Shown here piece by piece: positions 4,105 to 61,472 of a stretch of DNA of 64,000 nt. The notes beneath the pieces are model-generated. The model did not search any database. It was given only the letters and a program-made list of their open reading frames with translations, and was not told the DNA's origin. The position numbers and the translations under genes are program-made. Positions within the stretch are counted from its first letter, which is position 1. Every line of letters starts with the position of its first letter. Origin of the DNA: Conus ventricosus. Its lineage: Eukaryota; Mollusca; Gastropoda; Neogastropoda; Conidae. The stretch lies in NCBI GenBank assembly GCA_018398815.1, contig CM031601.1:30186242-30250241 (forward strand), written 5' to 3'.

Positions 4105-4238
4105 GTCGGGTGCCAATGCGTCAGCTGGTGTACAGGGTGCAGCCCCTGCCCCAGAGTATGCTGCCACTGGTCTGGGACTTTGGGCAGCTCAGCTCCAATG
4201 TGGAACACATGTACATTGCTCAGATGGTCCGCCGTTAT
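4105..4238 (+). CDS. RNF213-like exon a
   Basis: Acceptor ctgcctgcag|GT and donor TAT|gtgagt bound a 134-nt exon. It starts with the last two bases of a codon and ends in phase 0. It encodes 44 residues including VPMRQLVYRVQPLPQSM and LVWDFGQLS, matching in my memory the segment of vertebrate RNF213 just upstream of its first active AAA ATPase module. RNF213 is a very large cytosolic AAA+ ATPase with E3 ubiquitin-ligase activity, implicated in lipid-droplet and anti-pathogen ubiquitylation. The next exon joins in phase after 947 bp. Earlier exons must lie left of the window or in sequence I could not recognise. Invertebrates can carry several RNF213-like genes, so orthology is not claimed. 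Confidence 0.88.
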
Positions 4239-5185: not shown

Positions 5186-5281
5186 GAGCGCGAACAGCTT
5201 TTAGGTGACCTGACCCAGCAAGAGTTGATCACGTTGACCAAGGTGCTTGTGGAATGTCAAGCTTTCATAAGGAATCTGAAG
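5186..5281 (+). CDS. RNF213-like exon b
   Basis: A 96-nt, phase 0-0 exon between acceptor tgattttag and donor AAG|gtgaat. It encodes 32 residues ending LTKVLVECQAFIRNLK. In the vertebrate protein the corresponding helical stretch directly precedes the DECSFVSLRD motif, which is exactly what the next exon (12915) begins with. Phase and order therefore support a single transcript. The intron that follows is 7.6 kb and full of transposon debris. Confidence 0.85.
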
Positions 5282-12914: not shown

Positions 12915-13028
12915 GATGAGTGTAGCTTTGTCAGTCTGCGTGATGCTGACAGAGCTCTGATGGTGACTGGTTGGTTTCTGAAACAGACTGAACTGTTGAG
13001 GAAGATTCAGGAAGACCTAGGACCTAGG
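12915..13028 (+). CDS. RNF213-like exon c
   Basis: A 114-nt phase 0-0 exon between acceptor ggattcttcag and donor AGG|gtatgt. It encodes 38 residues beginning DECSFVSLRDADRAL and continuing TGWFLKQTELLRKIQ. The DECSFVSLRD box is one of the most recognisable conserved strings of the RNF213 family. The exon follows the one at 5186-5281 in phase. The following intron (6.2 kb) holds an almost complete LINE. Confidence 0.92.
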
Positions 13029-19231: not shown

Positions 19232-19389
19232 CGTGTAACATCTGACATCACCAAGTCACTTGTACTGGCTCTGTCAGTGTGCTACAGAGCAGGTTTGCCA
19301 GAGAAAAAGAAGTTTGAAGACCACATTGGAGCATTCTTGCCATCCTTCAACATCAGGGGTTCCATTGATTTTGGTCACATTCTGGACAG
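19232..19389 (+). CDS. RNF213-like exon d
   Basis: A 158-nt exon between acceptor tttgtttgcag and donor ACAG|gtaaaa. It starts in phase 0 and ends with two bases of a codon. It encodes 52 residues including LALSVCYRAGLPEKKKFE and AFLPSFN, the family segment leading into the first Walker A. Its final AG joins the first base of the exon at 27440 to make Ser, so the phase fits. It lies downstream of LINE copy 1 and the reverse CR1-like piece. Confidence 0.88.
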
Positions 19390-27439: not shown

Positions 27440-27665
27440 TTGTCAAGATGTTCTGCTGAGGGAGGTTAAACTGGGCGAGAAAATTGCTCGAAACCAGGCC
27501 TTGAAGGAGAATGTGTTCATGATGGTGGTGTGCGTGGAGCTGCGCATCCCCCTCTTTCTGGTGGGCAAGCCAGGCTCCTCCAAGTCTTTGGCAAAGACCA
27601 TAGTGGCAGACACCATGCAGGGCCAGCAGCTGGATGCTAAATGCCTCTTCAGCACTTTGAAAGAG
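27440..27665 (+). CDS. RNF213-like exon e (Walker A)
   Basis: A 226-nt exon between acceptor gactcccag and donor GAG|gtaggc. Its first base completes the Ser codon left by the exon ending at 19389, and it ends in phase 0. It encodes 75 residues with KIARNQALKENVFMMV, then LFLVGKPGSSKSLAKTIV. GKPGSSKS is the Walker A (P-loop) of the first catalytically competent AAA module of RNF213, and its Lys binds ATP phosphate. The sequence is almost unchanged from what I recall of vertebrates, so this exon is under strong constraint. Context: the 18-bp duplication above sits in its acceptor tract. Confidence 0.95.
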
Positions 27666-31031: not shown

Positions 31032-31202
31032 GTGCAGATGGTGTCCTTCCAGTGCAGCCCTCTGGCCACTGCTGACAGCATCCTGACCACTTTCCGCCAG
31101 TGCGCCCAGCTTCAGCAGGACAAGGACAGGGGCAAGTTTGTGGCCGTGGCTGTACTGGATGAAGTCGGCTTGGCTGAAGACTCCCCACACATGCCTCTCA
31201 AG
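31032..31202 (+). CDS. RNF213-like exon f (Walker B)
   Basis: A 171-nt phase 0-0 exon between acceptor ggttgtgcag and donor AAG|gtgata. It encodes 57 residues with MVSFQCSPLATADSI, then FVAVAVLDEVGLAEDSPHMP. VAVLDEVGL is the Walker B motif of the module whose P-loop is in the preceding exon, with the hydrolytic Glu in DE. All catalytic residues are present, so the ATPase module looks functional. Spacing from Walker A to Walker B (about 95 residues when joined) is normal for this family. Confidence 0.95.
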
Positions 31203-40694: not shown

Positions 40695-42019
40695 TGTACT
40701 CCCAGTTCTTATAGAAACAGGGAGTACTTTAGAATGGGAATGAAAAAATGCTGTCTGTGTGCGTGTGCGTTGTGTGTGTGTGTGTGTCCATCCGTCTGTG
40801 GTCAAAATGTGTTCCACTCACTCTAGACAAAACTGCTGGGCCAATCTTTCTGAATATTTTGGTATGTTCATTATGGGGCCAAAGATGATCCCCAATGTGT
40901 TATTTTACCATTATAGCCATTACTAATAGCTGTAACGGCCTGTAATGGTTTTTCTTCTTTATGGAATATCTCAGAAAGTACTTGGCCGATCTTTGTGAAA
41001 ATTAGCAGGTATGTTCATTATGGGTCACGAATGATGGCTGATGTTTTAGTTTACCGTTATAGCCGTTACTAACAGCTGTAACGGCCTGTAATGGTTTTTC
41101 TTCTTCATGGAATATCTCAGAAAGTACTTGGCCGATCTTTGTGAAATTTTGTAGGTATGTTCATTATGGGTCACAAATAATGCCCGCTGTTTTAACCGTT
41201 ATAGTGCTACTAATGGCTGTAACGACCTGTAATGGTTTTTCTTCTTTACGGAATATCTCAGAAAGTACTTGGCGATCTTTGTGAAGAATTAGCAGGTATG
41301 TTCATTATGGGTCACGGATGATGCCCGATGTTTTAGTTTACCGTTATAGCCGTTACTAACGGTTTGTAACGGCCTGTAGCAGTTTTTCTTCCTTATGGAA
41401 TATCTCAGAAAGTACTTGGCCGATCTTTGTGAAAATTAGCAGGTATGTTCATTATGGGTAACGGATAATGCCCGATGTTTTAGTTACCGTGATAGTCGTT
41501 ACTAACGGCTATAACGGCCCTAACAATTTTTCATCTTTATGGAAATTCTCAGAAAGTACTTGGCCGATCTTTCTGAAGATTTGTAGGTATGTTCATTATG
41601 GGCCCCGGATGATGCCCAATGTTTTAGTTTACCGTTATAGCCATTACTAACAGCTATAAGGGCCCCATAATGATTCTTCTTTTTTATGGAATATCTAAGA
41701 AAGTATGTGGTTGATATTTCTGAAAATTTGTAGGTATGTTCATTATGGGTCACGGATGATACCCAATGTTTAAGTTTACAGTTATAGCCGTTACTAATGG
41801 CCATAATGGTTTTCTTTTTTATAGAAAATTCAGAAAGTACTTGGCCGATATTTCTGAAAATTTGAAGTATGTTCATTTATAGTCACAGATGATGATGATG
41901 TTTACTAGAATAGCCATTACTAACGGTTACACCAGCCCAAGACAGTTTTTCCTCTTTATGGAATATCTCGCGCGTTATTCAGGATAAAATGGGAGTACGT
42001 TTATATGCTTTGCATCTTG
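40695..42019 (+). mobile_element. Pearl-like element, long copy with internal satellite
   Basis: The same left end (tgtactcccagttcttatag) and right end (aatgggagtacgtttatatg then ctttgcatcttg) as the short copy at 31536. In between lie a (GT)n tract and about eight core units of 134-147 bp. Anchors cagaaagtacttggccgatc occur at 40972, 41118, 41259, 41406 and 41550, with variants at 41697 and 41831. Each unit has ccgttatagccgttactaac-type sequence. The right end lies 13 bp from the exon at 42033. Confidence 0.85.
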
Positions 42020-42032: not shown

Positions 42033-42071
42033 GCTCTGCATCCTTTGCTGGAAGATGGCTATGAAGTTCAG
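42033..42071 (+). CDS. RNF213-like micro-exon g
   Basis: A 39-nt phase 0-0 exon between acceptor tttactgtttcag and donor CAG|gtatga. It encodes ALHPLLEDGYEVQ. In vertebrate RNF213 the Walker B segment is directly followed by a near-identical LHPLLEDG string, so this continues the exon ending at 31202 after a 10.8-kb intron. The following conserved segment (a GISNWALDP-type sensor region in the family) was not found before the assembly gap. The next exon is therefore either in the gap or missing from this scaffold. Confidence 0.88.
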
Positions 42072-44390
42072 GTATGAATATGTAGCTCACTGTATACACA
42101 TCACCAAAGCAAGGGTGTGTATAAAGGGCTCAGTGTGCATTTCATCTTTTATGCATCAGTTGCAATATCTTTGCATGTGTAGATTAATAATCAATGTATT
42201 TGTTATGATGTATTCTTCATGTATATATATATATATATACATGACACTCATTTATAGAATGTGAAAATGCAGACTTTCAGCTCCACAGGGATTATGCATC
42301 TTTATTTTCAGCCATTGCTGAAATGAATTGCAGCCATTGTAATCTGCATACAAAGTTAGAATCCTGTAGATTCTTATTCATGAAGTAAGACAGATATCTT
42401 TACACATGTAAGATATGCTGTCAGAAAGTGTTTGTAAAGTGTGTGCCTCACATGAATAAACAGTTGCTTACTTATGAGCAATAAGCTTGTAACTTTATCT
42501 TCTTATGCTAACAGGTATTTATTACAAGCTGTTATCGACTTAGACTGTATGTATACACAATGAATAGTAAGTGTACAAGGATTGTCTTGTCCTTTCACAT
42601 GATGAACAGGTTTTGTCCACATTCTCTGCATTACCCAAAACTCTTTTTGTGCATCTTCTTTGCAAGTTTAGGCTTGTTTGGTAGGTGATTTTTTTTTTTA
42701 TTGTCTATCAGTTGTGTTTGTGTTTCTTCATAACTTTCTAATGTCGGGCATTCCAGAGGTATTTTTGCCCTTATTAACAGCGTCGCCCTTTTTTCCAATC
42801 CTGTGCTTGTAATGTCCTTATTTCTGTTGCTGTCTTTAATTTACATGTCTTGGGTTGTTTCAGTCTGCAAGTAACAGAAAGTTTTTGAAGATTTAGAAAG
42901 AATTAGTGGCTGTTTGCTGTCAAAGAAAGTCAAAGAAAATTAATGAATTAAACAAGAGTTACCTGTAAGTTGTAGTTTAATTTGGATTATTTTACAGCAC
43001 AGTGTTGGGAAGGAGTGTTCACATGAGATGCTGTGCACAGGAACATACTCAGGTTTTAGATGCGATTGACCTCCTCTAACTGAAACTATACTTGGGTGGG
43101 TTTTCACAAATTTTATCAGAGCTGTGAAGGGAGGGCATGTGAACGTTCCTTCCCAACTCTATGCTCTAAATAATCCAAATTAAACTACAACTTACAAATA
43201 AGTCTTGTTTAATTCATTAATTATTTCTCCATAGCGATTGGTTCACCCACTTTCACATGAGAATTTAGAGGAAGAGGTCAAACGCGGTAACTGAAACAAT
43301 CTGTGAGGTAGCTTCTTACATTTTTCTGCTTCTAAGCAAAGATAATGGAGAGCCTTATGTTTGACTGCTACAAGGCTAGCATAATTTTTCCTATTGCCTG
43401 CGCCAGCTCTCTGATTGGTACAGACTTTTTATGCAGCAGGCCCGTACAGCTATCACAAAGATTTCTTTTTCTCACAGGAGTGAGTCTGACTGTCATTGAT
43501 TCTGAGTAAGATCACACCCAGAAACTGAATTTGTTTTGATGGTTTCAGCTCTGTCTTTGATGGGTGTATCAGGAAACCTAACTTTTGAAGTTATGTAACC
43601 CAGGTTCCTAAACGCACAGACCCAGACCACAAATACCAAAACTCTGACTGCACGATTATACTCCAATTTTTATTAACAAGTTAAATAGACAAAAATCCAA
43701 ACAACAATATAAACCTAAAACAGGGCTGATTCAATTTTCAGTGATTAGTGACAAAGAAACTTTAGGGTTGTGACAGAGAGAAAGAAAAGAGTGGGCAACT
43801 CAAAAGGGGCACTGCAAAAGAATACAAAACATAAAAATCTGCACGGGACTATGTGCGAAAAACACACAATAATAACAATGGCCAAACCAAAAGCCATCAA
43901 AGGCCTTCAGCAAACATCTCAACTAGGAAACACACAATGAGGACAATGCATCACTAATAAAATAGTAGTGATCTTATCAAGTTCAAATCCACTTGACCCT
44001 GGTTATGGTAATGCCAAACACACTTTGATCTGATCCAGTGTTAAACTGAATACAGTGAGTTGCATACCAACATACTGACAGCTCTTCGCTATCAATTGGC
44101 CACCTGACCATGGCGGCAAATCTGCTTACATCCTTTATCAGTCATCCAACTGAACCACTAGGCAGTAAGCCAGATCAATCATTCTCTCCACTAGTCCCTG
44201 GTTTCCAACAGATGTCCCCATAAAACCAATTTCATACAACCATAGCCATTTTGATTAACATCAGTCTCTAAGTTGACACTAATAAAATAATTTAAGGATA
44301 AACAGTCATCCTTGAAAGCAAGTATTTCTTCTTTTCAACTGAGAAAGCAAAAATAAACATCCTCTGAAATTCAAGGAAAACTTCTTAAAA
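42072..44390. other. Intron or intergenic, no recognised gene
   Basis: AT-rich. It contains a short (TA)n at 42222-42240 and no domain-like frame. Inverted words around 42960 and 43190 (aagttgtagtttaatttgga and its complement) suggest a decayed foldback element between about 42880 and 43250. Confidence 0.45.
42950..43235. repeat. Foldback (inverted repeat) element
   Basis: gtagtttaatttggattatt at 42970 is mirrored by aataatccaaattaaactac at 43169-43188. Flanking words aattaatgaattaaacaaga (42938) and tcttgtttaattcattaatt (43202) are also complementary. The arms are about 55 bp, with gggaaggagtgttcacatg mirrored by catgtgaacgttccttccc. It is a likely MITE of about 290 bp. Confidence 0.75.
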
Positions 44391-44563
44391 CTTAACACAT
44401 GTACCATGATTAAAACACAAAGAACCATGTACCAAACTTAACACATGCGCCATGATTAAAACACAAAGAACCATGTACCAACTTAACACATGTGCTATGA
44501 TAAAAACACAAAGAACCATACAACTTAACACATGTGCCATGATAAAACACAAAGAACCATGAG
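44391..44563. repeat. 42-46-bp minisatellite, four copies
   Basis: Units starting cttaacacatg at 44391, 44437, 44482 and 44524, each with ccatgattaaaacacaaaga and small indels. Minus-strand open frames through it are artefacts. Confidence 0.92.
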
Positions 44564-45109
44564 ATGTAGACATTTCCTCTACTAAAACCATGTGATGTGA
44601 CAAACACTGTTTTACTGCAAGAACAAAGGAAAATGAGATTTATTTAGGACCATGTGGTCTAAAACACAATCTCTCAAAAATGTTTCTGAAACAATGTGGT
44701 GTGAGCCACAATTCTAAAGCAACAGTGAATAATAAATAACCTGAACTCACCTTCAAATAATATAGCTAGGTTTAAACTTAATTCAACATGCGGGCCTAAA
44801 TTCTAACAACTGAAAATATAACAGCTAAAGCCAAGTGCAATTCTTATCAGGAAAATCCACCAAAAATCAATCCCATCCAGCTGACAGCATAGAAAATATA
44901 TGGCAATTCTAAAGGAAAAGAATCAGTTAGTATTTTTTCGAAGCATACTTTTAATACTTAGAGTAACTAACCTGGATTAGCACCACCAAGCCACAAACAG
45001 CGTTTCCCAACCTGTCTGTCTGACTCAGCACATTTATAGAAAAGAGATCAGTCAACAGAAGTGGCCAAACAGTAAAAAAAAAGTGTCTTAATACTAAAAC
45101 CGGCTAAAT

Positions 45110-45529
45110 TTTTCTTTTCTTTTTCTTTCTTTCTGCGTACGCAGGCTAAATACTCCTGTGGACACTCCCTGTATAGCCAGGCAGTGGAGTTTTGTGTGTA
45201 TGACCCATTTTTATCCCGCCATTAAGGCAGCCATACTCATCTTCGGGGAAGGTGCTTTGCTATGTATCACGTGTCATCCATACCAACGGCCAAACCGGCC
45301 TTCTCTTTTCCGAAAGTTGGTGATGGGATTTTACGTGTGTGCAAGATGTTTTTGCGTGCGTTCACACACGGAACCTCGGTTTATAGTCTCATTCGAAGGA
45401 CTATATGGGGAATGGAGTCAGAACCAATGTTAACTCCGAGGGAAAAATCCCCCTATACCGAAATTCGAACCCGCAACCCAGGATCACGAGTCCGGCGCTC
45501 TACCAACTGAGCTATCCGGCCCCCCAACA
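45110..45529 (-). mobile_element. tRNA-headed SINE (420 bp) with 9-bp target duplication
   Basis: cggctaaat at 45101-45109 and 45530-45538 flank the insert. On the minus strand it starts with a tRNA-like head: A box tagctcagttggtagagc (about 45498-45515) and B box gggttcgaat (about 45464-45473). It has a conserved body with cctcggtttatagtctcatt on the + strand, and ends in an A/G-rich tail (pyrimidine run 45110-45134 on the + strand). It is a different family from the long SINE at 32306. The head is not a functional tRNA gene because it lacks an acceptor-stem partner. Confidence 0.85.
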
Positions 45530-45839
45530 CGGCTAAATAACATGACATATAGAACAACAATACTAGTGGAAAGCAGTAGATGTTTTTACCTCAAAACATT
45601 ACAATCACTAATGAAAGTTTTTATCTTTTATTATTATTTTTTTTTAACATACTAAAATTGCTTTTAAAACCTTAGTAACCTGTGAATTCTGACGGGTTAC
45701 ACAATCACGGTGCAATCCTAATGCACTCCTGCCTTTAAAACCATACAACAAAACTGTCATCAAGAAAAGCTGTGGATGTATGTTCTTTCATCCTTAGCTT
45801 GGCAAACACAGGTTCATCAGTTTTGTGAACAAGCGAGGA

Positions 45840-46011
45840 GCTGAAGCAAGGCCTTTGGGCAGAGCTGTGTATATTCATAATGCTGACCTCTCCAGACAAA
45901 TCTGATCAGTTTCCAGAAATCTGGGTGAATGGCTATGGAATAGTGGGCATCTTTGAGGTCAGCTGAGCTCGTGTAACAATCTCTCTGAACAAGTCGATGC
46001 ATTAGAGCCAC
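45840..46011 (-). pseudogene. DIRS/Ty3-type reverse transcriptase fragment
   Basis: The minus-strand frame reads SSADLKDAHYSIAIHPDFWK, then IRFVWRGQHYEYTQLC. The ADLKDAYxxIxI... layout is the RT block with the first catalytic Asp, as in DIRS-like and Ty3-like elements, and the F-x-W-x-G-x-x-YE spacing favours DIRS. It is only about 57 codons with no neighbouring RT motif, so it is a broken fragment. Confidence 0.6.
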
Positions 46012-46082
46012 AACTGTTTTTCTCGAAAAAATTGTGTTTTGACTTTTTCATATTTTTAGGTGTATTAATACAGTCTGTTTAA

Positions 46083-46400
46083 ATGCTGAAACATGGTTAT
46101 GAACATTTATTAGTTTTGGTTGATAGCAAAGAAACAGTTGTTGCCCTGTCCACATCCAACCAGATTCTGCATGCCACAAATGAACAGCTAGCAGTCACAG
46201 ACTGTGGCCCCAAGAATGAATGGTTAGAAAGGGAAATCACCACTCTCAGGCCAAACTTGTTTATGCTAGCAGTTATCAGTTGTTGGCTGAGGAAATTCCT
46301 GCAAGCGAAGAGAAAGGTTGGGCTATTAGATTACCCGCCCTGCAGGTACTTCTGGGTGGGGAAAATCAGCACCGGGAACCTGGGGCAAAGCGAAAGGGGT
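46083..46400 (+). other. Unassigned open frame truncated by the gap
   Basis: A frame opens at 46083 (MLKHGYEHLLVLVDSKETVV) and runs into the N run. Codon use is plausible, but I recognise no family, and no confident splice border joins it to the RNF213-like exons. It could be an exon, transposon debris or chance. Confidence 0.25.
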
Positions 46401-46500
46401 NNNNNNNNNNNNNNNNNNNNNNNNNNNNNNNNNNNNNNNNNNNNNNNNNNNNNNNNNNNNNNNNNNNNNNNNNNNNNNNNNNNNNNNNNNNNNNNNNNNN
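46401..46500. other. Assembly gap (100 N)
   Basis: Exactly 100 N, the conventional placeholder for a scaffold join of unknown size. Orientation of the sequence right of this point relative to the left is therefore not guaranteed. Confidence 0.99.
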
Positions 46501-46542
46501 GATGTTGTCATGGGTTTCAGTGCAAAAGGTTTAAATTATTAA

Positions 46543-47370
46543 CCCGTTCCCTGCCTGGAACGAGTAACGCTCGTTCAGAAAACCGCAGAAAACCGCAAAT
46601 CGCTACGCCCCGAACGAGAGTGTCTCGCCGTAACTTCGTAACAGAAAGCAGAAAAATCTACTTGGGAGACAACCCTCTAAAATGTTCTCACCTCTTCTAC
46701 TGGTGTAAAGGAACAGCCCCTTTCCCTTCTCGCGAGCAGCCAGCTGACCACATGTTATGCAAATTGCGAGTTGAGAGGTCACAGCTGATAAGCATATTCA
46801 AGATGGCAGCTCAACCTAGCACTTCGTCGATGCGTCCCGTTTTCAAGCGTCACACTGCCCTTGATATTTTAGATGACATTCTAAAGTATCAAGATAGTGA
46901 TGAAGAAGACCTTTGAGGATCGGATCCTGATACTAGCGATGAGGAGGAGACGGATGGGAATCAGCACTATCCACTTTTATCGGAGATACATGCTGGTGAT
47001 GAGGTGGCTTCATTGTTCTCTACACAACACAGCAGTAAGAAAGCGCCATTAGCGTGGGTGACGAAGCGGAAATTGCTGAACGCGTGCCGTGAACAAGCAC
47101 TGCACCCCCTCCTTTCTTGACGAACGGGGTGGTGGACGTGGTACGGGCTCAGAACGACGGTGAAGGCCCCGTGGAAGCGGCCGGGGGTGTGGTATGGGGC
47201 GTGGTCAGCAACAGCTAATCAAAGAATGGCGAGAAAGAGGTGCACAGCCCTTCAACCTTGCTGTTGTTTTGACTGGGAATTCTGGTCTGCAAGTCAACTG
47301 TGCACATTTTCAGCTGTACAAAGTTCCAGTCTTCAGTTCCTTCATGACCAGAAAGTGGTTTCAGGCAAGT
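46543..47370 (+). mobile_element. piggyBac-like element, 5' part
   Basis: TTAA at 46539-46542 is followed by cccgttccctgcctggaacg, a piggyBac-style CCC terminus, and then cgagtaacgctcg subterminal words. The frame from 46803 reads MAAQPSTSSMRPVFKRHTAL and DILKYQDSDEEDL, an acidic transposase-like N terminus. After a stop and frameshifts, 47200-47368 reads IKEWRERGAQPFNLAVVL, then GNSGLQVN, resembling the stretch before the DDE domain. A possible right end is TTAA at 48456-48459 after a cgcgtctgcaggg-type segment, but the (GT)n arrays between make this uncertain. Confidence 0.6.
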
Positions 47371-47527
47371 AGCTCTATTTTTCTATTGTTGTTTTTTTTT
47401 GTTTGTTTTTGTTTTTACTACATGATTCTTCATTCCTTGACTATTCATTTTCTGTATTTCTCTTCTTTGCCCTATTTCCTACTGAAACCACATAATTATG
47501 GCAAATAATGACTGTATGGATAGGTGG

Positions 47528-47528
47528 G

Positions 47529-47577
<49 letters not shown>

Positions 47578-47764
47578 GCGCGTGCGCGCCTAAGCATTAT
47601 TTATTTCTGTATGCAAGTTTTCCATATAAGTTTGTTCATTTTGTAAAACACAGAAGCACTCATCCACAGCAGATTTTTTGTTTTGTATCATTGTGGTGTT
47701 TTTACATTCATGTGTGTGTGATACTGTTAGTGTGTGTTTGTGCATATGTGTAATGTATGTGTGT

Positions 47765-47817
<53 letters not shown>

Positions 47818-47841
47818 AGCTGTTTGTGTGTATGCATGTGT

Positions 47842-47896
<55 letters not shown>

Positions 47897-47931
47897 ATGC
47901 TCAACTGTGGGTCTGCTTACTGTGTGTGGTG

Positions 47932-47979
<48 letters not shown>

Positions 47980-47983
47980 GAAG

Positions 47984-48032
<49 letters not shown>
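47528..48032. repeat. Large (GT)n microsatellite cluster
   Basis: Four long (GT)n runs (about 47528-47575, 47759-47814, 47847-47893 and 47934-48030). The last runs are separated by a recurrent gaagctgtttgtgtg word, indicating local tandem duplication. Confidence 0.95.
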
Positions 48033-48459
48033 AAAACTCTCACATTGAAAACAAAACAAAAACTGTTTTATCACATGTTATTGGTGTGAACCATCATCAT
48101 AACAAACAAAACCAATATAGAATGATGTGAAATTGTAGACAATGGTATAAGTAAGTAATCCAGAAAAAATCTAACAAATAACTCAACAAATGGGTGAATA
48201 AAATGGGTGAACATGTTGTTTCCGTAACTGTAGCATTGCTATTTTACCCAAAATGTATTTAAGGTTATGCTCATTGCAAAGTTCACGTTTTACCCTTTCC
48301 ATTAATATATAACAATTGCTTGTTAGGTTTATATTAGGGGATGTAAAATAAAATCAAAAAGTGCAAAAATCGCGTGTCTGCAACGGTTGTACACATGTGC
48401 AGTGCACGCGTCTGCAGGGAAGTGACATTGCTCTGCCGCACTCGTCGTGAAAGTATTAA

Positions 48460-48972
48460 AGTAAAAAAAATAATAAAAATGAACGCAAGTGAGATTTCAA
48501 ACATGGTTCATGTTCACTGTAACCACTGGTATTTTACTGCTTCAGATGATGAAAGACAATGATACTACCAATTAGATTTTCTTGGCCCTTTGCATTCATA
48601 GTACTTGACTTTTGTCAACTGCTATGACCAGGATGCTAGTTTATATTCATGACCCACCTGCCTTCGCCAAGCGTGCAGTACCAGTTCAAAAATTACTAGC
48701 ACAAGCACAGTCACTAGGTCCATGTCCTAGGACTGGGCTCCCTATTTTGGGGGTAACAGGATCAGATTGCGATGCCCCAGTCTGGCTTGCCTTGTCACTT
48801 TTCAAAGGATTAAAGAGAGGAAGGTGGTGATAAGTCTGTGCACTGGCATCAATTGCACAAGTTACAAGGTCATGAACCAGGAAGATGTAAAGCAACAATT
48901 AAAAAGAGTTTCTACTACTAATTGGTTATGTAAATGAAAACCACTATAATGAGTATCATAAAGCTAGTAGCT
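48460..48972. other. No gene recognised
   Basis: A 72-codon frame at 48612-48830 has no recognised domain. Confidence 0.4.
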
Positions 48973-48981
48973 GTTCATAGG

Positions 48982-49033
48982 TAAGGTAAGGTAATGTTGC
49001 TTATAGCCCAGCCAAACACAAAGGGCCATATTA
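48982..49033 (-). mobile_element. 52-bp LINE tail insertion
   Basis: The reverse complement of the 3' tail of the LINE family of copy 3 (ctataagcaacattaccttacctta). gttcatagg occurs on both sides (48973-48981 and 49034-49042), a 9-bp target duplication. It is an extreme 5' truncation. Confidence 0.85.
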
Positions 49034-49125
49034 GTTCATAGGAGAGGGAAATGTGCTAGTTGAAGACAAAGAATTCCTATCGCGTTTTGAGCCAAAGCCA
49101 GATGTAGGTATAGTGGCAGACTCAC

Positions 49126-49305
49126 CTGTGCCATCAAGCAGCTATGAGAATTGTCCTTGACCTCCAATTCCACTTGCAGGAATTGAGCCAGGCTGTCATG
49201 CTGTTGCTCCTGGAAGTACACCTGACTGCACCACTCATCCTGAGCACGTATCACAGCATCCGGTGTGGCGCACCACAGCAAAACTTTCTTGCATTCTGTC
49301 AGGAT
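49126..49305 (-). CDS. RNF213-like exon on the minus strand (CATPDAV)
   Basis: On the minus strand, acceptor gaattgttgctcag and donor CAG|gtgagt bound a 180-nt phase 0-0 exon of 60 residues: ILTECKKVLLWCATPDAVIR, then YFQEQQHDSLAQFL. In vertebrate RNF213 a segment with CATPDAVVR followed by a YFxxQxHxSFxxFL string lies several hundred residues beyond the Walker B region found on the + strand here. It follows the minus-strand exon at 53756-53891 in protein order. The opposite orientation relative to the seven + strand exons is discussed in the findings. Confidence 0.9.
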
Positions 49306-50343
49306 CTGAGCAACAATTCATACATCTGTGTTAGAGGAACAGCAAGAGAAAGACTGCAGCAATTAAAGTAATTCTTGGGAGAAATACAAAATGTAAAAAT
49401 GTTCTTTTTGGGGGCAACAATAAAACATCAGTGATAAAAGAAAAACCACAGAAAAACAGCATGATAACTCATACAGTTATTGAAAACTTCTAAGTCCACA
49501 GTCATACTATCACCACTTTAGGAATAATGTGGATGTCCTGGCAGCTGAACAAACAATCTCATGCAACAATGACATCAGAGCCTTGAAAAACAGCAATATT
49601 GTCATTCCTGTACTCAAGAAAATGTGTGAGGCAACAATCATATCATCCATTCTTTGAGGAGCACAAAGACTGCCCTTGTATTTATGCAAACAATTCTAAA
49701 GCAACAATTATAACATCATCAAAAGCATCAAAAAAAGGTTTCCTCTAAAAGAACAGCTTTTGGACACTAATCATAACAGCAGTGCTTAAACAGATGGCAG
49801 CACCTCAAAGTAAACACAAATTCAACAAATAACAAAAAAATATAGAGGGAAGTAGACATGACCTGAAAAGATTAGAAATAATGCTAAATAATCATGTCAC
49901 CTTCACAGTCATTTCCAATCCATACAAGTAAACTGATCTTGTCAGTGAATAGCAACATTCAGATCTATTAGAATTTTGTTTTTCTGTGTGCGTGTCAAAT
50001 CTGAGAATATATATAGCTCCTAGTCGTTCCTCCTGAGAACAATGATCTAAACCTCTATGCTACTTTCATATCAGGAGCAGCACAGGCAGTAGAAAAACAA
50101 AAACAAACAAAAACTAATACAAGTGAGCGAAGAAACCTATTTCCTATTTACAATATTTTTTTTTCATCTACAATTACAATATTTCTTTTGAAGAATATTC
50201 CAAGCAGTTTGGTTGTTTATGGTGTGATTCTTTATCTATTGATTATTAAAGTACAGTCAAGATTTAGGTTACTTTGAGAGAAAGAAGAATCTTGCTGAAG
50301 CTGAACAACACATCTCCACTTTAGGACCACTGTAATGATCATG
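49306..50343. other. Presumed intron, nothing assigned
   Basis: AT-rich, with repeated gcaacaat(c/t)ata words but no clear period. Confidence 0.4.
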
Positions 50344-50347
50344 TTAA

Positions 50348-52250
50348 CCCAATGACTACCAGATCGACCACAAGATTTCCCTTGTCTGAATACCGGATTG
50401 ACCGAGATCGACCGCTGAATACTAGGTCAACAACTTTCACTTTTACCATCACATATCCCAGAATACAATCGCAACAGAAGAGTTTTCCGGTACTTCCGTT
50501 TCTGGACGCCATTTTGGTTTTTGTAGTATGGGTTTTGGTGGAGTAGTTTCGCTGCTGTGAATTTTCAAAGTTCAGCCTTTTTCTGCAAAGATTTTCTGGG
50601 AAAATGGCGGATCAAGTTGTCAAGAGGCCTGTGATGTTGGTCCATCTTGGGTTGTAGTGTTATTATTTTGTTGTTGTTGTTGTTGTCGTGTATCAATCCC
50701 TTAATGTGGCTTGTAGTGTGTTTCCACCTTAATGTCGTTCAGCTCAGGTTAGGTTTACTTTCTCTCTCTCTCTATTTTCACTGTCTGTGTAATTCACCCT
50801 GCAGGTTCACGTGTGGCTGGTGCCTGTCTCTTTAACTGGCTGTCTCTATCGGCCTCTCACCTGTCTTTTTACCTGCCACATGTACAGCATTCCCCTTAGC
50901 TTGAGGTGTTCTCACTCTGTGACGTATGGTGGCATGTTTGCTGCCAACAGTTAGAAAGGTTTTCTCTTCACTTGTACGGAAGATGTCCCTGAAAGTGCCC
51001 ACTCCAGTTCTGGTTCTCGACCATATCACCGAAGGTACAGTCAGTATCTTCATTCCTGCAGTCAGCCTATAGGGGAGGGATGTCAGCATTTCTGCCTCTG
51101 CTCGGCTGGTTCTCTCGACTGGACAGAGGGCAGAGAGTCGCTTGACCCGCCACTTTCTTGGGTCACCCACAGGTACCTGTACCCCTTTCCTGTTCCTTTC
51201 CTTTTTTTTTCCTCCTCCCGCTGGCTTCACCCGGGGCTGACGTCCTTGAGGCCGCAGTGTGTGAGCACACGTTCTTCACCAGATGGTCCTACCCCTGTCC
51301 GGGACCTTTGACGACTACCACCTCATCCGACTGGATGTGTTCTACACTGTGTTTTCAGACTTCATGCAGCCCATGTGACAGCTAAGCAAGTGTGGTTAAC
51401 TCTGTGTCGCGCTATTGTGGAAGTGGTGTGGGTGTGTGCTGAGGGTGTCGGCACTGAAAGACTGTATTCAGAACAGACCCGGTTTGGACACCCGATTGGA
51501 CATGATACTCCCAGTGAACTTTGGGAAGGTAAGGGTGGGGGACAATGGGAAGGAACAAACCAAATGTGTGTGTTGAAATGCTTATTTGTTACTATGTGTA
51601 TGTTGGTGTGAATAAATGGTGTGTTGTATTGTAATCTTTCCTGTCTGATCTCTTGCAGAGCGTGTGAGGTCAGTCACTCCCTTCACTCCCTTTTAGACCG
51701 ATCCTGTCAGGGCCGACCTCCAGGGGTCGGTCATGACACAAGTAAGTATGCAACTTGCAGAATTCATTTTCTGAAGTGATATTGATGAAGAGAGCATATT
51801 TGCAGGCTACGTTCTTGAAGAAGATTTGAAGCAAGATGATTCGGATGTCGATCTTGACCTACTTATAAATAAAGATTGACTAGTGACTGATTTTGAGGCC
51901 CAAATCGATAATGATTCGGGCGATGATAATGACGACATCCAATAGCTCATTGCTGCTGGGCCCAGTCCCCCAAAATAAGAACATTCTGAAAACAAAACTT
52001 GCTACAGATTCTTTAATAACTGACTAGAGTGGCTGGCTACAAGAAGTGAAGCCCCCAAAAGTTTCCCTTGTTTTGATAGCCAGGAAACCGGGTCAGTCAG
52101 TGGGTGTGTCCCATGATTTGCCTGTGGGAGCGTCATCTTTAGCCTTTTGATTTCAGGAGAATTTTGGCAGACTTTTAACGAGAAACAAATTTATTTGCTG
52201 CACAAAAGCAAGCAGAAAAGGATGAACATAAACTCTGGCCTAAAATAAAA
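50348..52250 (+). mobile_element. piggyBac-like relic, split by an inserted block
   Basis: TTAA (50344-50347) is followed by cccaatgactaccagatcga, a CCC-type end. ATG at 50604 opens MADQVVKRPVMLVHLG. After about 1 kb of unrelated sequence (50690-51745), the frame 51779-52020 reads DIDEESIFAGYVLEEDLK and DNDSGDDNDD, the acidic N-terminal region of a piggyBac transposase. SGEFWQTFNEKQIYLLHKSK (52155-52215) looks like the start of the DDE domain. Several stops are present and no right end was found. The N-terminal character is convincing; continuity of the two parts is inferred. Confidence 0.55.
50690..51745. other. Inserted or unassigned block inside the piggyBac relic
   Basis: It contains (CT)n at 50760-50773, a 132-codon minus-strand frame (50832-51230, basic, no domain recognised), an aataaa at 51610 and a hairpin gaccgatcctgt...gacctccaggggtcggtc near 51697-51735. 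It is possibly a solo LTR or an unknown element. No terminal pair was confirmed. Confidence 0.3.
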
Positions 52251-52308
52251 ACTGCCTGTTTATCAAAAAGCAAAGAGCAGACGGACAAGAGGTACATCAT
52301 CACCACAG

Positions 52309-52367
52309 TGTGTGTGTGTGTGTGTGTGTGTGTCGGAGGGGGGGCGGGGGGGGGGGGGGGGGGGTTG
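52309..52367. repeat. (GT)n followed by poly-G
   Basis: (GT)n then a G run of about 25 with single interruptions. Length is likely unreliable. Confidence 0.9.
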
Positions 52368-52588
52368 CTCAGTGCACTTGTGCAAAAGCACATCTTTGCT
52401 GAATTCCATCACAATCTAAAGTTCAGTATTCAGTAATCTGTTGTTGTTATTTTTGTCCCCTCAGTAGTTAGAAGACAAATTTTCTTGTATGTGATGCCTT
52501 CAGTTTAACAAAATTGGTGAAGTTTGGGTTTTTTTTTCCTTCACAACAAAAGTTAATTATCTAGTGTGCAGACCATACAGATTGACTC

Positions 52589-53418
52589 TTTTTTTTTTTT
52601 TGCTGCCCCAACCTCTGTGCCACCTCAGAGGCAGTGCACACACGCCACTCATTCCGACACCCCGTCCACAGCCACAGCCCGGTCGGCCCCGCCGCAGCCC
52701 CGGCACCGACAATCCACAGAGGGCAGTCAATGTCAAGCCGTCAAGAGGCAACCCACCAGAGGAGACACTGCACTGCTGCCAAGTCACTTCGGTGGTGTTC
52801 AGTGGCGCCTGTTCTGATCTAACATACGCAGGACACCACCTACTAAGCCCCCTACTGACGACAATAATTGCTTAGTCGCGGAGCCGGAGTGAGTGAGCTC
52901 TCCCTCCAGAGGGCGCCACCACGTCCGTCCAACGACAGCCCCCATGGACTCGCCGATACCAGTGACCCGACGGAACCAAACCAAGACCACAGACGTGGAG
53001 GGCATCGAAAGTGAGGTCACCATGAGAGCAGGGCATGAAGGGACACAGAATTTGAGACATTTTTTGTAATGCTGATCGATGAGAATGAGGATGATTAAGA
53101 TGATGCTACGGAATTCCATTTCGGTCTGAGACTACATGACAGGGCTGTACTCTACGCTTCCTTTCATAATATATCCCGGCGTCAACCAGGCCCGAGAGAT
53201 ACAGGCACCTGCAGTGTTGGTCAGGGAATTTGAGCAACACTCTCAGAAATGCATCCATTAAGTGGATGAAACTCGACTGTGTGGTCCCAGTCTTCCCAAC
53301 TGAGTCCGCAGCAAACTCAACTCTGGGTAGGAGCCGGTCGGGGCAGAAAAACCCACATGCCCCTGATGGGATTCAAACCCACGACCTCCCAGCCGGGAGT
53401 CCGCGACGCTAACCACTG
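52589..53418 (-). mobile_element. Long tRNA-headed SINE, copy 2 (inverted)
   Basis: The reverse complement of 32306-33183 over nearly its whole length. The poly-A tail appears as the T run at 52589-52601, and the tRNA-like head with B box lies near 53375-53385. About 15 bases of the head (including part of the A box) are absent at 53418, so this copy is slightly 5'-truncated. No clear target duplication was found. Confidence 0.85.
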
Positions 53419-53644
53419 GTATTCACATAGTCATATAGACACAAAGTCATGCGGTAGGCAGAGGGTTAAGGACTGACTCTGTGAATATTCTCAAGAACAA
53501 AACAAAACAACAACAACAAACACATTAAAAGTGACTACCACAGTCAGCCTTTCCTGTGTTAGGGTGTGATTCAATGAGAGAATTCTCATTCATTCAAGTC
53601 CATTAAAGAATGTCCCAAGAACAGGAGTTACTCAGTGTTACATC

Positions 53645-53650
53645 AGACAA

Positions 53651-53724
<74 letters not shown>
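53645..53724. repeat. (AG)n microsatellite
   Basis: (AG)n with a few GG interruptions, starting about 30 bp beyond the donor side of the minus-strand exon. Confidence 0.95.
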
Positions 53725-53725
<1 letters not shown>

Positions 53726-53755
53726 CTTTAGGGTCAACACTGATTCCATACTGAC

Positions 53756-53891
53756 CTTTTCATGCAGGTCTGGGGTCAGGGGCTGCGAAGGAGTTACATA
53801 TTTCTGCCACACTGTCAACACCAGCGAGGCAGCCATGTCACGATGGTGACCAATCCAAACATCATTCACGTCAAGCTGACAGTGCTCACAG
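53756..53891 (-). CDS. RNF213-like exon on the minus strand (DVWIGHHRD)
   Basis: On the minus strand the exon ends at donor AAG|gtcagt in phase 0. It encodes up to 45 residues including LDVNDVWIGHHRDMAASLVL and PLTPDLHEK. The vertebrate RNF213 counterpart has a DVFIGYHSD...A-S-VVL stretch ending EELHQK immediately before the CATPDAV exon, matching the order here. The acceptor is uncertain: tgctgttcag gives the 136-nt exon listed, while gcactgtcag would start it at LDVNDV in phase 0. Confidence 0.88.
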
Positions 53892-53963
53892 CTGAACAGC
53901 ATATCAAGGCTCATTGTTACATATGGTAAAATTACATGTAACTGTTTGAGCTGTCTGTCAAAA

Positions 53964-54047
53964 GATAAGATAAGATAATGTTGCTTATAGCCCAGCCGAC
54001 CGCAAAGGGCCATATCAGGGCTGTCACCACGTTAAAATCAACTCACC
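53964..54047 (-). mobile_element. 84-bp LINE tail insertion
   Basis: The reverse complement of the last 84 bp of the LINE copy 3 family (ttgattttaacgtggtgaca ... ataagcaacattatc). gtctgtcaaaa at 53953-53963 and 54048-54058 is the 11-bp target duplication. Confidence 0.9.
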
Positions 54048-54058
54048 GTCTGTCAAAA

Positions 54059-54734
54059 AGTCTACAAACAAAATCAGTGATCGATATACACAACCAAAAA
54101 ATGTCATTAACATGCTACTGCAATTGCAACAAAATTGTTACAAACAATGATACAAATTTAAATAAGCAAGCCAAAATTGTTTTTCAAATTTAAATAAGCA
54201 GGCCAAGATTGTTTTTCGAGTTTATGCCAAACAATGCCTTGACATTACATTAAGGTGAAACAGAAACGTCACATCTTAAAGTTGTTACTAAAGTCTGGTG
54301 TAATGCAAGATTCTAACCTGTTGAATTAGCAGAATTCATAAAGCCTTATAATAAGGGGTAGCATTCCCCAAAGTCTAATTGTTCTTGGTTGACAGAGTGT
54401 ACGTGACTGAAAGCAGCCATGGTGTTGCTGACACTACTGTGTTCATATCTTCTGTTAGCAGAGGTGGTAGTTCAGGAGCTGCGCCACTGTAATGAAACTT
54501 GCTGATGGCATCAGTTACCACTCAGTTCAACCCTGTAGATTAATTATTACTTGGGAGTATGCTTCAACAGAGCAATGGGTAGTATCAGCACACAGCATGA
54601 ACTGCTTCCTTTTACCAATTTTGCAACCATGTTTGTTGGCTGGACAAATTCTTTTTCTTGACATCAGTGATTTTTGTTCTTGTTTCAGTGGCAGATCAGC
54701 ATCTTCTCTTAAATACACTAGAATTTTCTTCATG
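54059..54734. other. Presumed intron, nothing assigned
   Basis: Includes a short local duplication tttaaataagcargccaa(g/a)attgttttt at 54157-54215. No coding signal that fits the missing RNF213-like segment was recognised. Confidence 0.4.
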
Positions 54735-54739
54735 GAACA

Positions 54740-55070
54740 GAAATTTCACCACTAAAAGTTCTCTAACCATACACTTACCTGTCCAAACAAATGCCTTACC
54801 CCTCGCATTCCCCACTTGGCATGGAACTCCATCACATTATCAGGATTTAATTTTTGTTTTAAAGTTGGAAGTGCAGGGAGCTAACCCCATCTCCATACCC
54901 AGTCAGGAAGCGACAGTGATCAGCCTTAGTGAGTTCACTCCATTGCATCACATTCAAAGCAGCTCAGTTTTGGTACCTTTTCCCAAGCGGGAAGGTGGGA
55001 GATCATCCCTGTGTTTGGACAAGTAAGTTTATCATTACATTACTTTTGGGTGTAAAGTTCCTTTTTTTCA
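54740..55070 (+). mobile_element. Terminal-repeat element, copy E
   Basis: The left end has an AT-rich segment then cacttacctgtccaaacaaa (54773-54792) and tgccttaccc. The right end has ctgtgtttggacaagtaagt (55010-55029) followed by the complementary AT-rich segment to about 55070. The interior (gggagctaacccc, gagttcactcc) is related to copies A to D. Confidence 0.75.
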
Positions 55071-55121
55071 CTTACGCAACAAATGCCCGAATATCAAAGA
55101 GGATGGCAGAAGCACACTCAC

Positions 55122-55175
55122 CTGACTAGGGAGACACTGATCTGATTCAACAATGACTTTGTACAGTTTCTCAAG
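55122..55175 (-). CDS. Candidate RNF213-like micro-exon
   Basis: On the minus strand, acceptor gagttcttag and donor CAG|gtgagtg bound 54 nt, phase 0-0, reading LEKLYKVIVESDQCLPSQ. The splice sites are strong and LEKxY resembles the family's LNRLEKHY segment, which lies before the DVFIGYHSD exon. About 25 residues expected between the two are unaccounted for, so this is tentative. Confidence 0.4.
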
Positions 55176-55599: not shown

Positions 55600-56216
55600 T
55601 GCAAATTGTGAATGTCAGTGGCTTTACTTCCAGCATAACTTATTACTGTGCAGTGCACCTGAGGGTTAGGGCCCGACTTTCTTTTTTTGTACACAATCCT
55701 GTCTTTGCCATTGTAAATCAACATTCACTTTTCTATCACAGTTTCTCTGATGACATTCAGCATTGTAATCTTCTGACAACTTTTGGTTAGCATTCCTTTG
55801 CCTGTAAGGCTCCTTTTATTTGGAACAATCTCTCACATCAACTCAAATACTCTGCCTTTCTGCTTTCCTTTAAACCAAACATGGAAACTTTTCATATCCT
55901 ATCAGACTGACATTCATAAATGTATGTTAGTGCTGTCTTCAGCAGCAAATATGAATGCCAATGATTATTCATCTAAGAGTAAAAAATTATTGTTTTCGTT
56001 TGAGAGGTGGTTAATGGGTGAACAGGGATTGTAAGAGGGCAAAGCTTGGTGGAGGTATACATGGACATGCAACAAGCTTGTGACTGTGGGAAGTGTTAAT
56101 GCGTACTGCCTGTTCTATCCTATCTGGCTTTTAATTTGATGTGTCTTCTTGTTTATTGTAAATGCCTAACACATTCGACTGATTAGGCATACACATTTTC
56201 TTAATAATGATGATAA
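55600..56216 (+). mobile_element. CR1/L2-like 3' end with internal deletion
   Basis: YHSFSDDIQHCN (about 55730-55765, a degraded FADDTQL box) is joined almost directly to LLTTFG...HSFACKAPFIWNN (55770-55830), the C-terminal signature of CR1/L2 pol (SFSVAAPxxWNSLP type). It ends in an ataatgatgataa tail, where the LTR element begins. The segment between RT core and C terminus is missing. Confidence 0.65.
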
Positions 56217-57435
56217 TGTAGCCGGGTGCTAACAGTGTATATTTCTTGGTCACCTGTTGTAAACGAGATATTTTGTTCATGAGTTATCTTCCCCCTTACC
56301 TCCCTTGGTTGAATCTCATTTCTTATTTTGTAAGTTCTTTAAATCATGAATACCTCAGAACCTACATAGTTGTGTATACGTTGCTGAAGTCACAAAAATT
56401 AATGTTATTCTATTCATTTACAATCGTGTTGAACTGAGAAGCCCATATTTTCCCTAAAACTGGTATTTCGACCAAATTAATCTTGGCGCCATTTTGAATT
56501 GTCCGACGAGCAAACCGTAGATAATTCTTGATTTCACAAAAAGTATGAGACAATCCAAAGAATCCATGAATGCACATTGAAAAGTCCATAAGCTCTCATT
56601 TCATATATCGCATGCCTATGATCTTTTCTGTGCAAGCTTGCGACTATACGAAATGATTGACGGCGCTGGCTCCCTTGAACAAGTCCCCCTCCTTTGTTGA
56701 TTGTCGGAGTTCTGATCTAAATTGTCGTTTTATGAAATTCGGACTTCCTAATCAAAATCTTTTTAATGACTCCATTTCTACGATAGAAGCAACCAAAAAT
56801 ATATAAAAATTATCATCCGATGGACCATTCCAACAGAATAACATTTTATCGAAGATCGTGTTAGGAGCACATGGCGACAGCCATGTGACAATAAAGCAAG
56901 TTGTGTTTTCTATCAAATTTTAAACACAAAGTTCTCGGCTTGGACGGCATCTTGGATAATGAAATTTATATGTATAAAAAGAGCAATATGCCAGCTTTTC
57001 ATTCATTACAAAAATATTTCATGCTGTTCAGTATTTTTCATCGAAATAGAAGAAAATATGACGTAAACTCGTTAAAAGTGGGTTCATTCTCGGACTTTAA
57101 TCACTAATAACTTGCCACAGAATTGTCCAATATGACTTATTGCATTTTATTCCTTGGGTTCTGAGGTTTTCATCGATATCAAATATGTTTGGATACTTTG
57201 ACTGTATGGCGAGCTAGACAATGCAGAAGCTGCGACAGATAGCACAAATTTTGTCATTTGCTGTCTCGCAAGGCTCATTTTGAGCGCGGCGCTGCATTGT
57301 CTTCTTTGCGGTCCGGGCAAGCTGTACATATTTGAGGCGCTGCATTGAGTGCAGGCAGTGTTGCCTAGAGTGTTGCCTAGAGTGTCACCGAGTGTGCGCA
57401 AAGTATTCCCCAGAGTGTTGCCTAGAGCGTTCGCT

Positions 57436-57467
<32 letters not shown>

Positions 57468-57677
57468 GTGCTCAGTGCGCTGAGTGCTGAGAGAGAGAGA
57501 GAGAGAGTTCCCAGGCAGTGTTCCTGGTTTGAGCTCCTTGTCATGGGAAAGAAATAAAAGAAGAAAACTCTGCTTTGTCCTGTGTGTTTTCTTGACTGGC
57601 TGCTGTCCCTTGGTTCCTGCACATATCATCATCTGCTGTCTTCACCTGCACACCCCTTACCCCTCCACACCATCACA
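56217..57677 (+). mobile_element. LTR retrotransposon, first LTR
   Basis: About 1.46 kb starting tgtagccgggtgctaacagt and ending ccacaccatcaca, repeated at 60222-61686 with very few differences. Near the end it has an aataaa (57552) and a (AG)n stretch (57437-57505). The ends define TG...CA. It is followed at once by a primer-binding-like site. Confidence 0.85.
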
Positions 57678-57679
57678 AC

Positions 57680-57698
57680 TGGCGCTGCGAGCAGGATT
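57680..57698 (+). promoter_or_regulatory. Putative tRNA primer-binding site
   Basis: tggcgctgcgagcaggatt starts two bases after the LTR. Position and the TGG start fit a minus-strand primer site. The tRNA partner is not determined. The same sequence recurs after the second LTR (61689). Confidence 0.6.
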
Positions 57699-57728
57699 CA
57701 AGACAAGGGACCAAGAAGACCGGACACC

Positions 57729-58262: not shown

Positions 58263-58821
58263 GACTGCAGTGCCGACGGTGACCTCCTCCACATGGTTAG
58301 CACTGCTGCTGTGGCCTCACTTGAAACTCGGCTGGCAGCACTCACGGCCACAGTCGCCAGCTTGAGGCAAGAAATGCAGCAACCACCACCTGCAAGGCCA
58401 CCACTTCAGGTCTGCAGCTGTGTGACGGACACACAGCACTCAAGACGACGGCCCAAGCGGAGGCGACGGAAGTCTCCACCTGTGAAAACTGGGGACAAAC
58501 CCCAGTCCTCTGCCACCATCAGCAGCCAGAATGGTGACAAGCGACATGGCCCAGCAGCACCCAGGCAACAGGCAGACTCCATTTTGCCTCAGCTGTCACT
58601 TGGAGAGTGGCATGAACTTAGCAGGAGAACCCATCCATTCAGCAAATTCTGTCCTCCTGGCCAAAGAAGCCTGCAGCTGGCGAGAACCGGGAGCTACAGG
58701 CCCTCATTCAGCAGCACAGTCGACTCATCTGCCGACAGGGAGTGCTCCAATGCCAAATGGTGGACCCTAAACTTGGGCGTGTGAGCAGCTGCTCCTTCCC
58801 AGATTGCTCCGCCCCTAGGTT

Positions 58822-61440: not shown

Positions 61441-61472
<32 letters not shown>

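What the first reader, a model, noticed from the sequence alone, without database searches (positions are those of the whole stretch)
42033..55175. RNF213-like exons switch strand across the 100-N gap
Seven phase-compatible RNF213-like exons read rightward up to 42071. After the gap, exons for a later part of the same protein read leftward (53756-53891, then 49126-49305). If the right-hand piece were flipped, protein order would be restored (Walker B, then DVWIGHHRD, then CATPDAV). So this is either a scaffold join in the wrong orientation or a convergent pair of RNF213-like paralogues. The first would mean the gene model here is artificially broken; the second would be a local gene-family expansion of an immunity-linked E3 ligase. 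The exons between these two segments (sensor region, second P-loop) are not visible on either side.
Basis: partly seen in the sequence, partly recalled or inferred. Interest (0 to 1): 0.85.

Follow-up and report, generated by a model that had tools for sequence, protein, structure and literature searches.

The report
Misplaced contigs splitting a snail RNF213-like gene
The apparent strand switch in this snail immune-type gene is most likely an assembly artefact: two nearly identical versions of one RNF213-like gene were assembled as separate pieces and shuffled together in opposite directions, so a gene model made here would be broken.

Summary
Seven rightward and two leftward exons of RNF213-like sequence lie either side of a 100-N gap. 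The window's genome is held (G000, 3.52 Gb, a caenogastropod snail by COI), so I read 200 kb further right and searched the assembly. A second exon set lies on minus to the right (copy M; 92.6-99.3% identical to the plus copy P in 10 of 11 exon comparisons, 83.9% in the other). P's own continuation lies further right, on plus. Neither proposed reading fits as stated. The right-hand contig sides with M, whose strand it shares. The left contig's true neighbour is another contig, 47-63 kb further right and reversed: their ends are the two termini of one transposon insertion (23-bp inverted repeats, AAGT duplicated) whose empty site is in M. In the stretches searched, copy number alternates between one and two, neither copy is complete, and 3 of 3 1000-N joins read put mirrored homologous stretches face to face. 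Best reading: two haplotypes of one gene, retained in pieces and interleaved. A recent inverted duplication, also mis-scaffolded, is not excluded.

The parts
4105..4238 (+). exon, RNF213-like copy P (about P0003 residues 1650-1693)
   Evidence: tblastn 78-87% identity in the best rows, E to 1e-20, AG/GT
5189..5281 (+). exon, copy P (P0003 about 1694-1725)
   Evidence: sensitive tblastn, 44%, E 2e-4, AG/GT; no counterpart recognised in copy M
12915..13028 (+). exon, copy P (P0003 about 1726-1764)
   Evidence: 71-77% in the two best rows, E to 4e-12, AG/GT
19232..19389 (+). exon, copy P (P0003 about 1765-1813)
   Evidence: 48% to P0003, E 1.6e-10; donor GT at 19390 read in the sequence
27440..27665 (+). 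AAA3 Walker A exon, copy P (GKPGSSKSL)
   Evidence: 79% to P0003, E 6e-29; acceptor AG at 27438-27439 read in the sequence
31032..31202 (+). AAA3 Walker B exon, copy P (VLDEVGLAEDSP)
   Evidence: 79% to P0003, E 7e-22; acceptor AG at 31030-31031 read in the sequence
42033..42071 (+). 13-residue exon ALHPLLEDGYEVQ, copy P, last P exon before the gap
   Evidence: matches P0003 ALHPLLEEGCEVE, AG/GT; M counterpart 38 of 39 bases identical
45991..45994 (+). target-site duplication AAGT, left side of a transposon insertion in copy P
   Evidence: AAGT also on the right flank in contig Cc; a single AAGT in copy M
45995..46017 (+). 23-bp terminal inverted repeat, left end of the P-only transposon that runs into the gap
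   Evidence: two exact copies in the 264 kb of ext, the other near the right end of contig Cc; 0 of 100 shuffles of the window hold a match
46401..46500 (.). 100-N gap, erroneous join between contig Ca (copy P) and contig Cb (copy M)
49126..49305 (-). exon with CATPDAV, copy M (P0003 2374-2433)
   Evidence: 59% to P0003, E 5e-18, AG/GT
53756..53891 (-). exon with DVWIGHHRD, copy M (P0003 2333-2373)
   Evidence: 49% to P0003, E 3e-6, AG/GT

Best explanation
There is one RNF213-like gene here in a heterozygous caenogastropod. Its two versions, P and M, most likely the two parental haplotypes, were assembled as separate short contigs and both left in the chromosome scaffold. Scaffolding interleaved them in opposite orientations. 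Contig Ca (P, plus strand, left of 46.4 kb) was joined to contig Cb (M, minus strand, right of 46.4 kb). The break in Ca lies inside a terminal-inverted-repeat transposon present in P and absent in M. Ca's true continuation is contig Cc reversed, then Cd. Cb's true neighbour is Ce. Shown: the exons, the two copies, the transposon bridge that makes the 46.4-kb join wrong, and the grouping of Cb's far end with Ce. Inferred: that P and M are alleles rather than recent inverted duplicates, and that all of Cb goes with its far end. The gene's product should work like RNF213, an AAA-core E3 ligase; that rests on homology only.
For: Second exon set on minus at ext 173-263 kb and P continuation on plus at 112-169 kb. 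Ca and Cd are inverted-colinear with Ce, introns included. Substitutions: 3.2-8.0% in 12 of 16 Ca/Ce blocks of 600 bp or more (the other four, 12.8-25%, are noisy stretches or repeat copies), about 2% in the four longest colinear blocks near the end of Cd, 0.79% in the Cb/Ce overlap. Three-way sites: Cb sides with Ce 45 to 2; Cc sides with Cd 133 to 25. Transposon ends at 45995 (Ca) and 109489 (Cc) with identical 23-bp inverted repeats, AAGT on both outer sides, and the uninterrupted site in Ce near 206370. Strand by P0003 residue on C7 in the stretches searched: 21-606 and 891-973 minus only, 974-1525 plus only, 1526-2282 both, 2283-2474 minus only, about 2475-2540 and 2858-3097 both, RING stretch 3092-3204 plus only. 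3 of 3 1000-N gaps in the fetched DNA lie between mirrored homologous stretches. P and M are sisters in the AAA3 tree, 100/95.
Against: Intron divergence near 5% is high for alleles. Three P contigs (Ca, Cd, Cg) read plus and three M contigs (Ce, Cb, Cf) read minus, which random orientation does not predict; only P contig Cc reads minus. A control gene (PF00940, by recall mitochondrial RNA polymerase) is present once (4 segments, one place), so the assembly is not doubled everywhere; this is one gene, and a second control did not complete. In one search Cb also has 32 sites of its own, so by that alignment it differs from Ce at 34 of 1,981 columns, more than the 0.79%. P's small exon 1694-1725 was not recognised in M and M's acidic exon (ext 203.3 kb) was not recognised in Ca, Cc or Cd. 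Copy M has an in-frame TGA in one exon, an error or a real loss. Cb and Cd hold 5,000-N runs of unknown origin. No read depth, Hi-C map or transcript was available.
Confidence: 0.72

Rival explanations
1. P and M are a real, recent inverted duplication of the gene (paralogues), and the scaffold is mis-ordered in addition.
For: P contigs Ca, Cd and Cg read plus and M contigs Ce, Cb and Cf read minus. Substitution divergence up to 8% in colinear Ca/Ce blocks. RNF213-like exons are multiplied on C13 and C16. The one control gene is single.
Against: In the stretches searched neither copy is complete while the two together cover the gene. Mirrored joins occur at three different points of the gene. 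Contigs of P and M alternate along the scaffold. A single duplication has one centre.
Confidence: 0.2
2. The right-hand contig Cb is simply flipped and belongs directly after Ca in the same gene copy.
For: Flipping would restore protein order within the window, and both sides have the same Littorina protein, P0003, among their best matches.
Against: Exons 2000-2282 of copy P lie on other plus-strand DNA, so Cb could not follow Ca directly. Ca's transposon end pairs with Cc. Cb's far end groups with minus-strand Ce (45 sites to 2) and overlaps it directly.
Confidence: 0.03
3. Two old, independent convergent RNF213 paralogues meet here and both are truncated.
For: Opposite strands, and both lose their 3' halves within the window.
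Against: P and M are 92.6-99.3% identical in 10 of 11 exon comparisons and sisters with support 100/95. Exons for their 3' parts exist elsewhere on the same scaffold.
Confidence: 0.02

Closest known systems
RNF213 (mysterin) family of AAA-core E3 ligases; nearest full-length protein found is Littorina saxatilis rnf213-alpha-like isoform X2 (P0003)
   Same: AAA3 Walker A and B exons 79% identical to P0003; exon order follows the protein; a RING stretch at 64% on the plus copy
   Different: No complete gene model can be read; the gene is split over many contigs of one scaffold
Retained haplotigs (haplotypic duplication) in long-read assemblies
   Same: Near-identical copies close together, interleaved contigs, mirrored homologous stretches at joins, copy number alternating between one and two
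   Different: Read depth, the usual proof, was not available; divergence is on the high side
Inverted segmental duplication
   Same: Two homologous copies in mostly opposite orientation
   Different: Three mirror centres within one gene, and neither copy complete in the stretches searched

Membership tests
RNF213 | AAA3 with Walker A and Walker B of the RNF213 type | tested here: met
   GKPGSSKSL and VLDEVGLAEDSP exons; residues 2770-2909 of PDB chain 8s24_A; E 7e-66 for a joined query that also held the minus exons, 163 bits for the plus part
RNF213 | Second active AAA module (AAA4) downstream | tested here: inconclusive
   Exons for parts of P0003 2000-2282 present in both copies, several with 1-bp indels; the P-loop was not read out separately
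RNF213 | RING domain in the E3 module | tested here: met
   C7:30768257-30768466 plus, 64% to P0003 3092-3161, which holds the RING-like cysteines from 3099; the match carries one TAA
RNF213 | RZ-type zinc finger | not tested
   The PF20173 search did not complete; P0003 3206-4366 was not searched with an answer
RNF213 | E3 ligase activity | not testable with these tools
   Needs protein
Retained haplotig | Two near-identical colinear copies including introns | tested here: met
Retained haplotig | Each copy at half the diploid read depth | not testable with these tools
   No reads held
Retained haplotig | Only one copy complete, or the two complement each other | tested here: met
   in the stretches searched; P0003 610-873 and 3206-4366 not searched with an answer
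Convergent paralogue pair | Two complete genes, tail to tail | tested here: not met
   No match on plus for 1-606, 891-973 and 2283-2474; none on minus of C7 for 974-1525 and the RING stretch (8 of 66 candidates and 1 of 73 were not scored)

The most novel reading that the evidence does not exclude
P and M are both real: a very young inverted duplication of an RNF213-like gene, held as near-identical opposite copies that exchange sequence (substitution divergence falls from about 5% to 2% along the gene), so the locus could keep reshuffling an immune E3 ligase.
Probability: 0.15. Interest if true: 0.4.

Novelty: not a real feature. Interest (0 to 1): 0.15.

Why it matters
It shows that an apparent local family expansion of an immunity-linked E3 ligase in a large snail genome can come from two haplotypes being shuffled together. 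Annotation here is likely to count one gene as several truncated RNF213 genes, and claims of RNF213 expansion in molluscs should be checked against read depth. A transposon with its target duplication served as a sequence-only bridge between contigs, a trick usable elsewhere.

Tried and rejected
Simple flip of the right-hand contig: rejected. Old convergent paralogues: rejected. Pfam on four single-exon frames gave nothing over cut-off. Species name: a full COI reads 96-97% to caenogastropod clusters but does not name the species. Lautoconus ventricosus (PMC8152183; passages incl. parts of the abstract, the assembly section) resembles it in size and method but has 3.59 Gb and 19,399 scaffolds, so I do not assign it. 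A second control gene (PF01028) did not complete. Literature searches: RNF213 with mollusc (11 papers listed), assembly duplication in gastropods (10 of 91 listed), RNF213 with invertebrate and gene family expansion (2 papers), RNF213 with haplotig (none). Judged by titles and starts of abstracts, none reports this locus; of the papers in these listings I opened PMC9993606 (passages) and PMC8152183.
Full report
Coordinates. I use window coordinates, continued to the right as 'ext' coordinates: ext 1 is C7:30186242 of the held genome G000 (3,523,720,488 bases, 12,740 contigs). I read 200 kb to the right of the window, then ext 264001-284000 and ext 500759-520758. P0003 is a Littorina saxatilis RNF213-like protein of 4,366 residues, the closest of the listed gastropod proteins to the Walker A exon (79%; 120 of 1,266 matches were listed).

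The observation. Five of the seven plus exons and both minus exons came from tblastn; the 13-residue exon 42033-42071 was read in the sequence and 5189-5281 needed a sensitive search. The 16 references with shuffled residues gave 0 hits where the real ones gave 92. Against the PDB chain 8s24_A of RNF213 the plus exons match residues 2770-2909 and the minus exons 3252-3350 (that this chain is human is recalled). According to the mouse RNF213 structure paper (PMC7311170, passages seen) only AAA3 and AAA4 carry all functional ATPase motifs; that the plus exons are AAA3 is my reading of their position and Walker motifs.

What lies to the right. Splitting at the 100-N and 1000-N runs, the scaffold is a patchwork of contigs: Ca (to 46400), Cb (46501-93588), Cc (93689-109779), Cd (110780-171123), Ce (172124-265390). 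Cb and Cd also hold 5,000-N runs; whether these are gaps or withheld stretches I cannot tell, and I treat them as internal. If they are gaps, Cb is more than one piece, and the part inside the window is tied to the rest only by strand and by exon order, which is unbroken (2243-2281, 2272-2326, 2333-2373, 2374-2433 going left). Exons of the gene are on all five contigs. On plus: Ca (to P0003 1960) and Cd (2000-2282). On minus: Ce (1527-2282), Cb (2243-2433), Cc (2000-2036).

Two versions. Ca and Cd are inverted-colinear with Ce, introns included. Exon identity between the versions is 92.6-99.3% in 10 of 11 comparisons and 83.9% in the other, which falls in a noisy stretch; three of the compared pieces include some intron. 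I call the plus version P and the minus version M. In a tree of 29 AAA3 sequences P and M are sisters (support 100/95), then Littorina P0003 (96/83), then one Batillaria protein (99/97). Substitutions are 3.2-8.0% in 12 of 16 Ca/Ce blocks of 600 bp or more and about 2% in the four longest colinear blocks near the end of Cd; the remaining Ca/Ce blocks (12.8-25%) and the highest Cd/Ce ones are noisy stretches or repeat copies. Many differences are single-base indels, and some stretches (Cd from 116457, Ce near 253.5-256.5 kb) have the indel load of uncorrected long reads: for Cd, 68 insertion runs in 2,203 compared columns.

Which version is Cb? In a three-way comparison of the Cb/Ce/Cd overlap (ext 91501-93534 of Cb), Cb shares 45 sites with Ce against Cd and 2 with Cd against Ce; 32 sites are peculiar to Cb. 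Cc shares 133 sites with Cd against Ce and 25 with Ce against Cd; 69 are peculiar to Cc. So Cb's far end is M and Cc is P. Cb overlaps the left end of Ce in direct orientation at 0.79% substitutions by BLAST; the MAFFT alignment, which forces gaps differently, shows 34 of 1,981 columns. Cb's strand is thus consistent with Ce; its place between Ca and Cc is not.

The bridge. Ca matches M up to position 45994 and then leaves it at a 23-base sequence that occurs once more in the 264 kb, at 109489 near the right end of Cc, in the orientation expected of the other end of one element once Cc is reversed. AAGT stands on both outer sides; M has one AAGT at the uninterrupted site near 206370. This is a transposon with terminal inverted repeats inserted in P only, and the gap at 46.4 kb lies inside it. 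Ca's true neighbour is therefore reversed Cc, which itself overlaps the start of Cd. The length of the element is unknown, and I did not count its family in the genome.

The rest of the gene. Genome searches with pieces of P0003 scored 72 of 73, 40 of 40, 35 of 35 and 58 of 66 first-look candidates. On C7 the matches are: 21-606 and 891-973 on minus only, at 30.517-30.643 Mb, with the first exons there twice; 974-1525 on plus only, at 30.113-30.156 Mb; 1526-2282 on both; 2283-2474 on minus only; about 2475-2540 on both (the plus one degraded); 2541-2782 on minus, with the plus side only partly read; 2858-3097 on both; the RING stretch 3092-3204 on plus only. Within the doubled part, exon 1694-1725 was recognised only in P and an acidic exon near 1961-1999 only in M. 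Residues 610-873 and 3206-4366 were not searched with an answer. In the searched parts neither version is complete and the two together cover them. Other RNF213-like exons lie on C13 (78.0-78.8 Mb), C16 (6.7-7.0 Mb) and small contig C5035.

Mirrored joins. All three 1000-N gaps in the fetched DNA (ext 109780, 171124, 512468) lie between contigs whose facing parts are homologous and inverted. The homology does not always reach the gap: Cc runs on 3.4 kb past it, Cd 1.1 kb, Cf 2.4 kb. The 100-N gap at 46401 is not of this kind; I did not test the other two 100-N gaps (93589, 265391) as mirrors. A true inverted duplication has one centre; three centres at three places of one gene point to scaffolding of homologous contig ends.

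Alleles or duplicates? For alleles: alternating copy number, interleaved contigs, three mirror centres, and insertions present in one version only (the transposon above, and a 5.7-kb insertion in P at ext 514.5-520.1 kb that holds a pair of 1.4-kb direct repeats 97.5% alike, LTR-like). For duplicates: intron divergence near 5%, the consistent strands of Ca, Cd, Cg against Ce, Cb, Cf (Cc is the exception), and a control gene that is present once (one gene, four segments). I give alleles about 0.75 and duplicates about 0.2. For scale, the cone snail paper PMC8152183 reports 1.05-1.08% coding heterozygosity for its species (passage seen); whether that species is the one here is not known. The confidence of the whole explanation was lowered from 0.74 to 0.72 on rechecking, because of the N runs inside Cb.

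How it works. As a protein the gene should act like RNF213: an AAA core carrying an E3 module. That is inference from homology. Two papers seen only in a search listing with the start of their abstracts (PMC12075652, PMC11549300) concern RNF213 in pathogen sensing and cell-autonomous immunity; RNF213 expansion in symbiotic bivalves is stated in PMC9993606 (passage). Nothing here shows expansion at this locus.

Noticed in passing
window 56200-64000: Two similar units about 4,005 bp apart, of LTR-element type by look, with gag-like open frames at 57558-58259 and 61540-62268; a tandem arrangement of one retroelement.
   Followed up: no
window 40839-41894: Tandem repeat, 147-bp unit, about 7 copies, directly before the last plus exon of the window.
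   Followed up: no
window 46500-47117, plus: Left end of contig Cb begins in an open frame that looks piggyBac-like (recalled motif, not tested).
   Followed up: no
C13:52756042-52757382 (L033): A complete COI frame (515 aa, code 5) inside a chromosome-scale scaffold; a very recent nuclear copy or mitochondrial reads built into the scaffold.
   Followed up: partly
ext 116457-129798 (contig Cd): A second copy of the preceding stretch with raw-read error load, as if a gap had been filled with an uncorrected read.
   Followed up: partly
C7:30603869-30605689 and 30640541-30642820, minus: The first exons of the RNF213-like gene occur twice on the same strand about 37 kb apart.
   Followed up: no
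Ce exon, ext 244005-244118: In-frame TGA in copy M where copy P and Littorina have arginine; error or real nonsense allele.
   Followed up: partly
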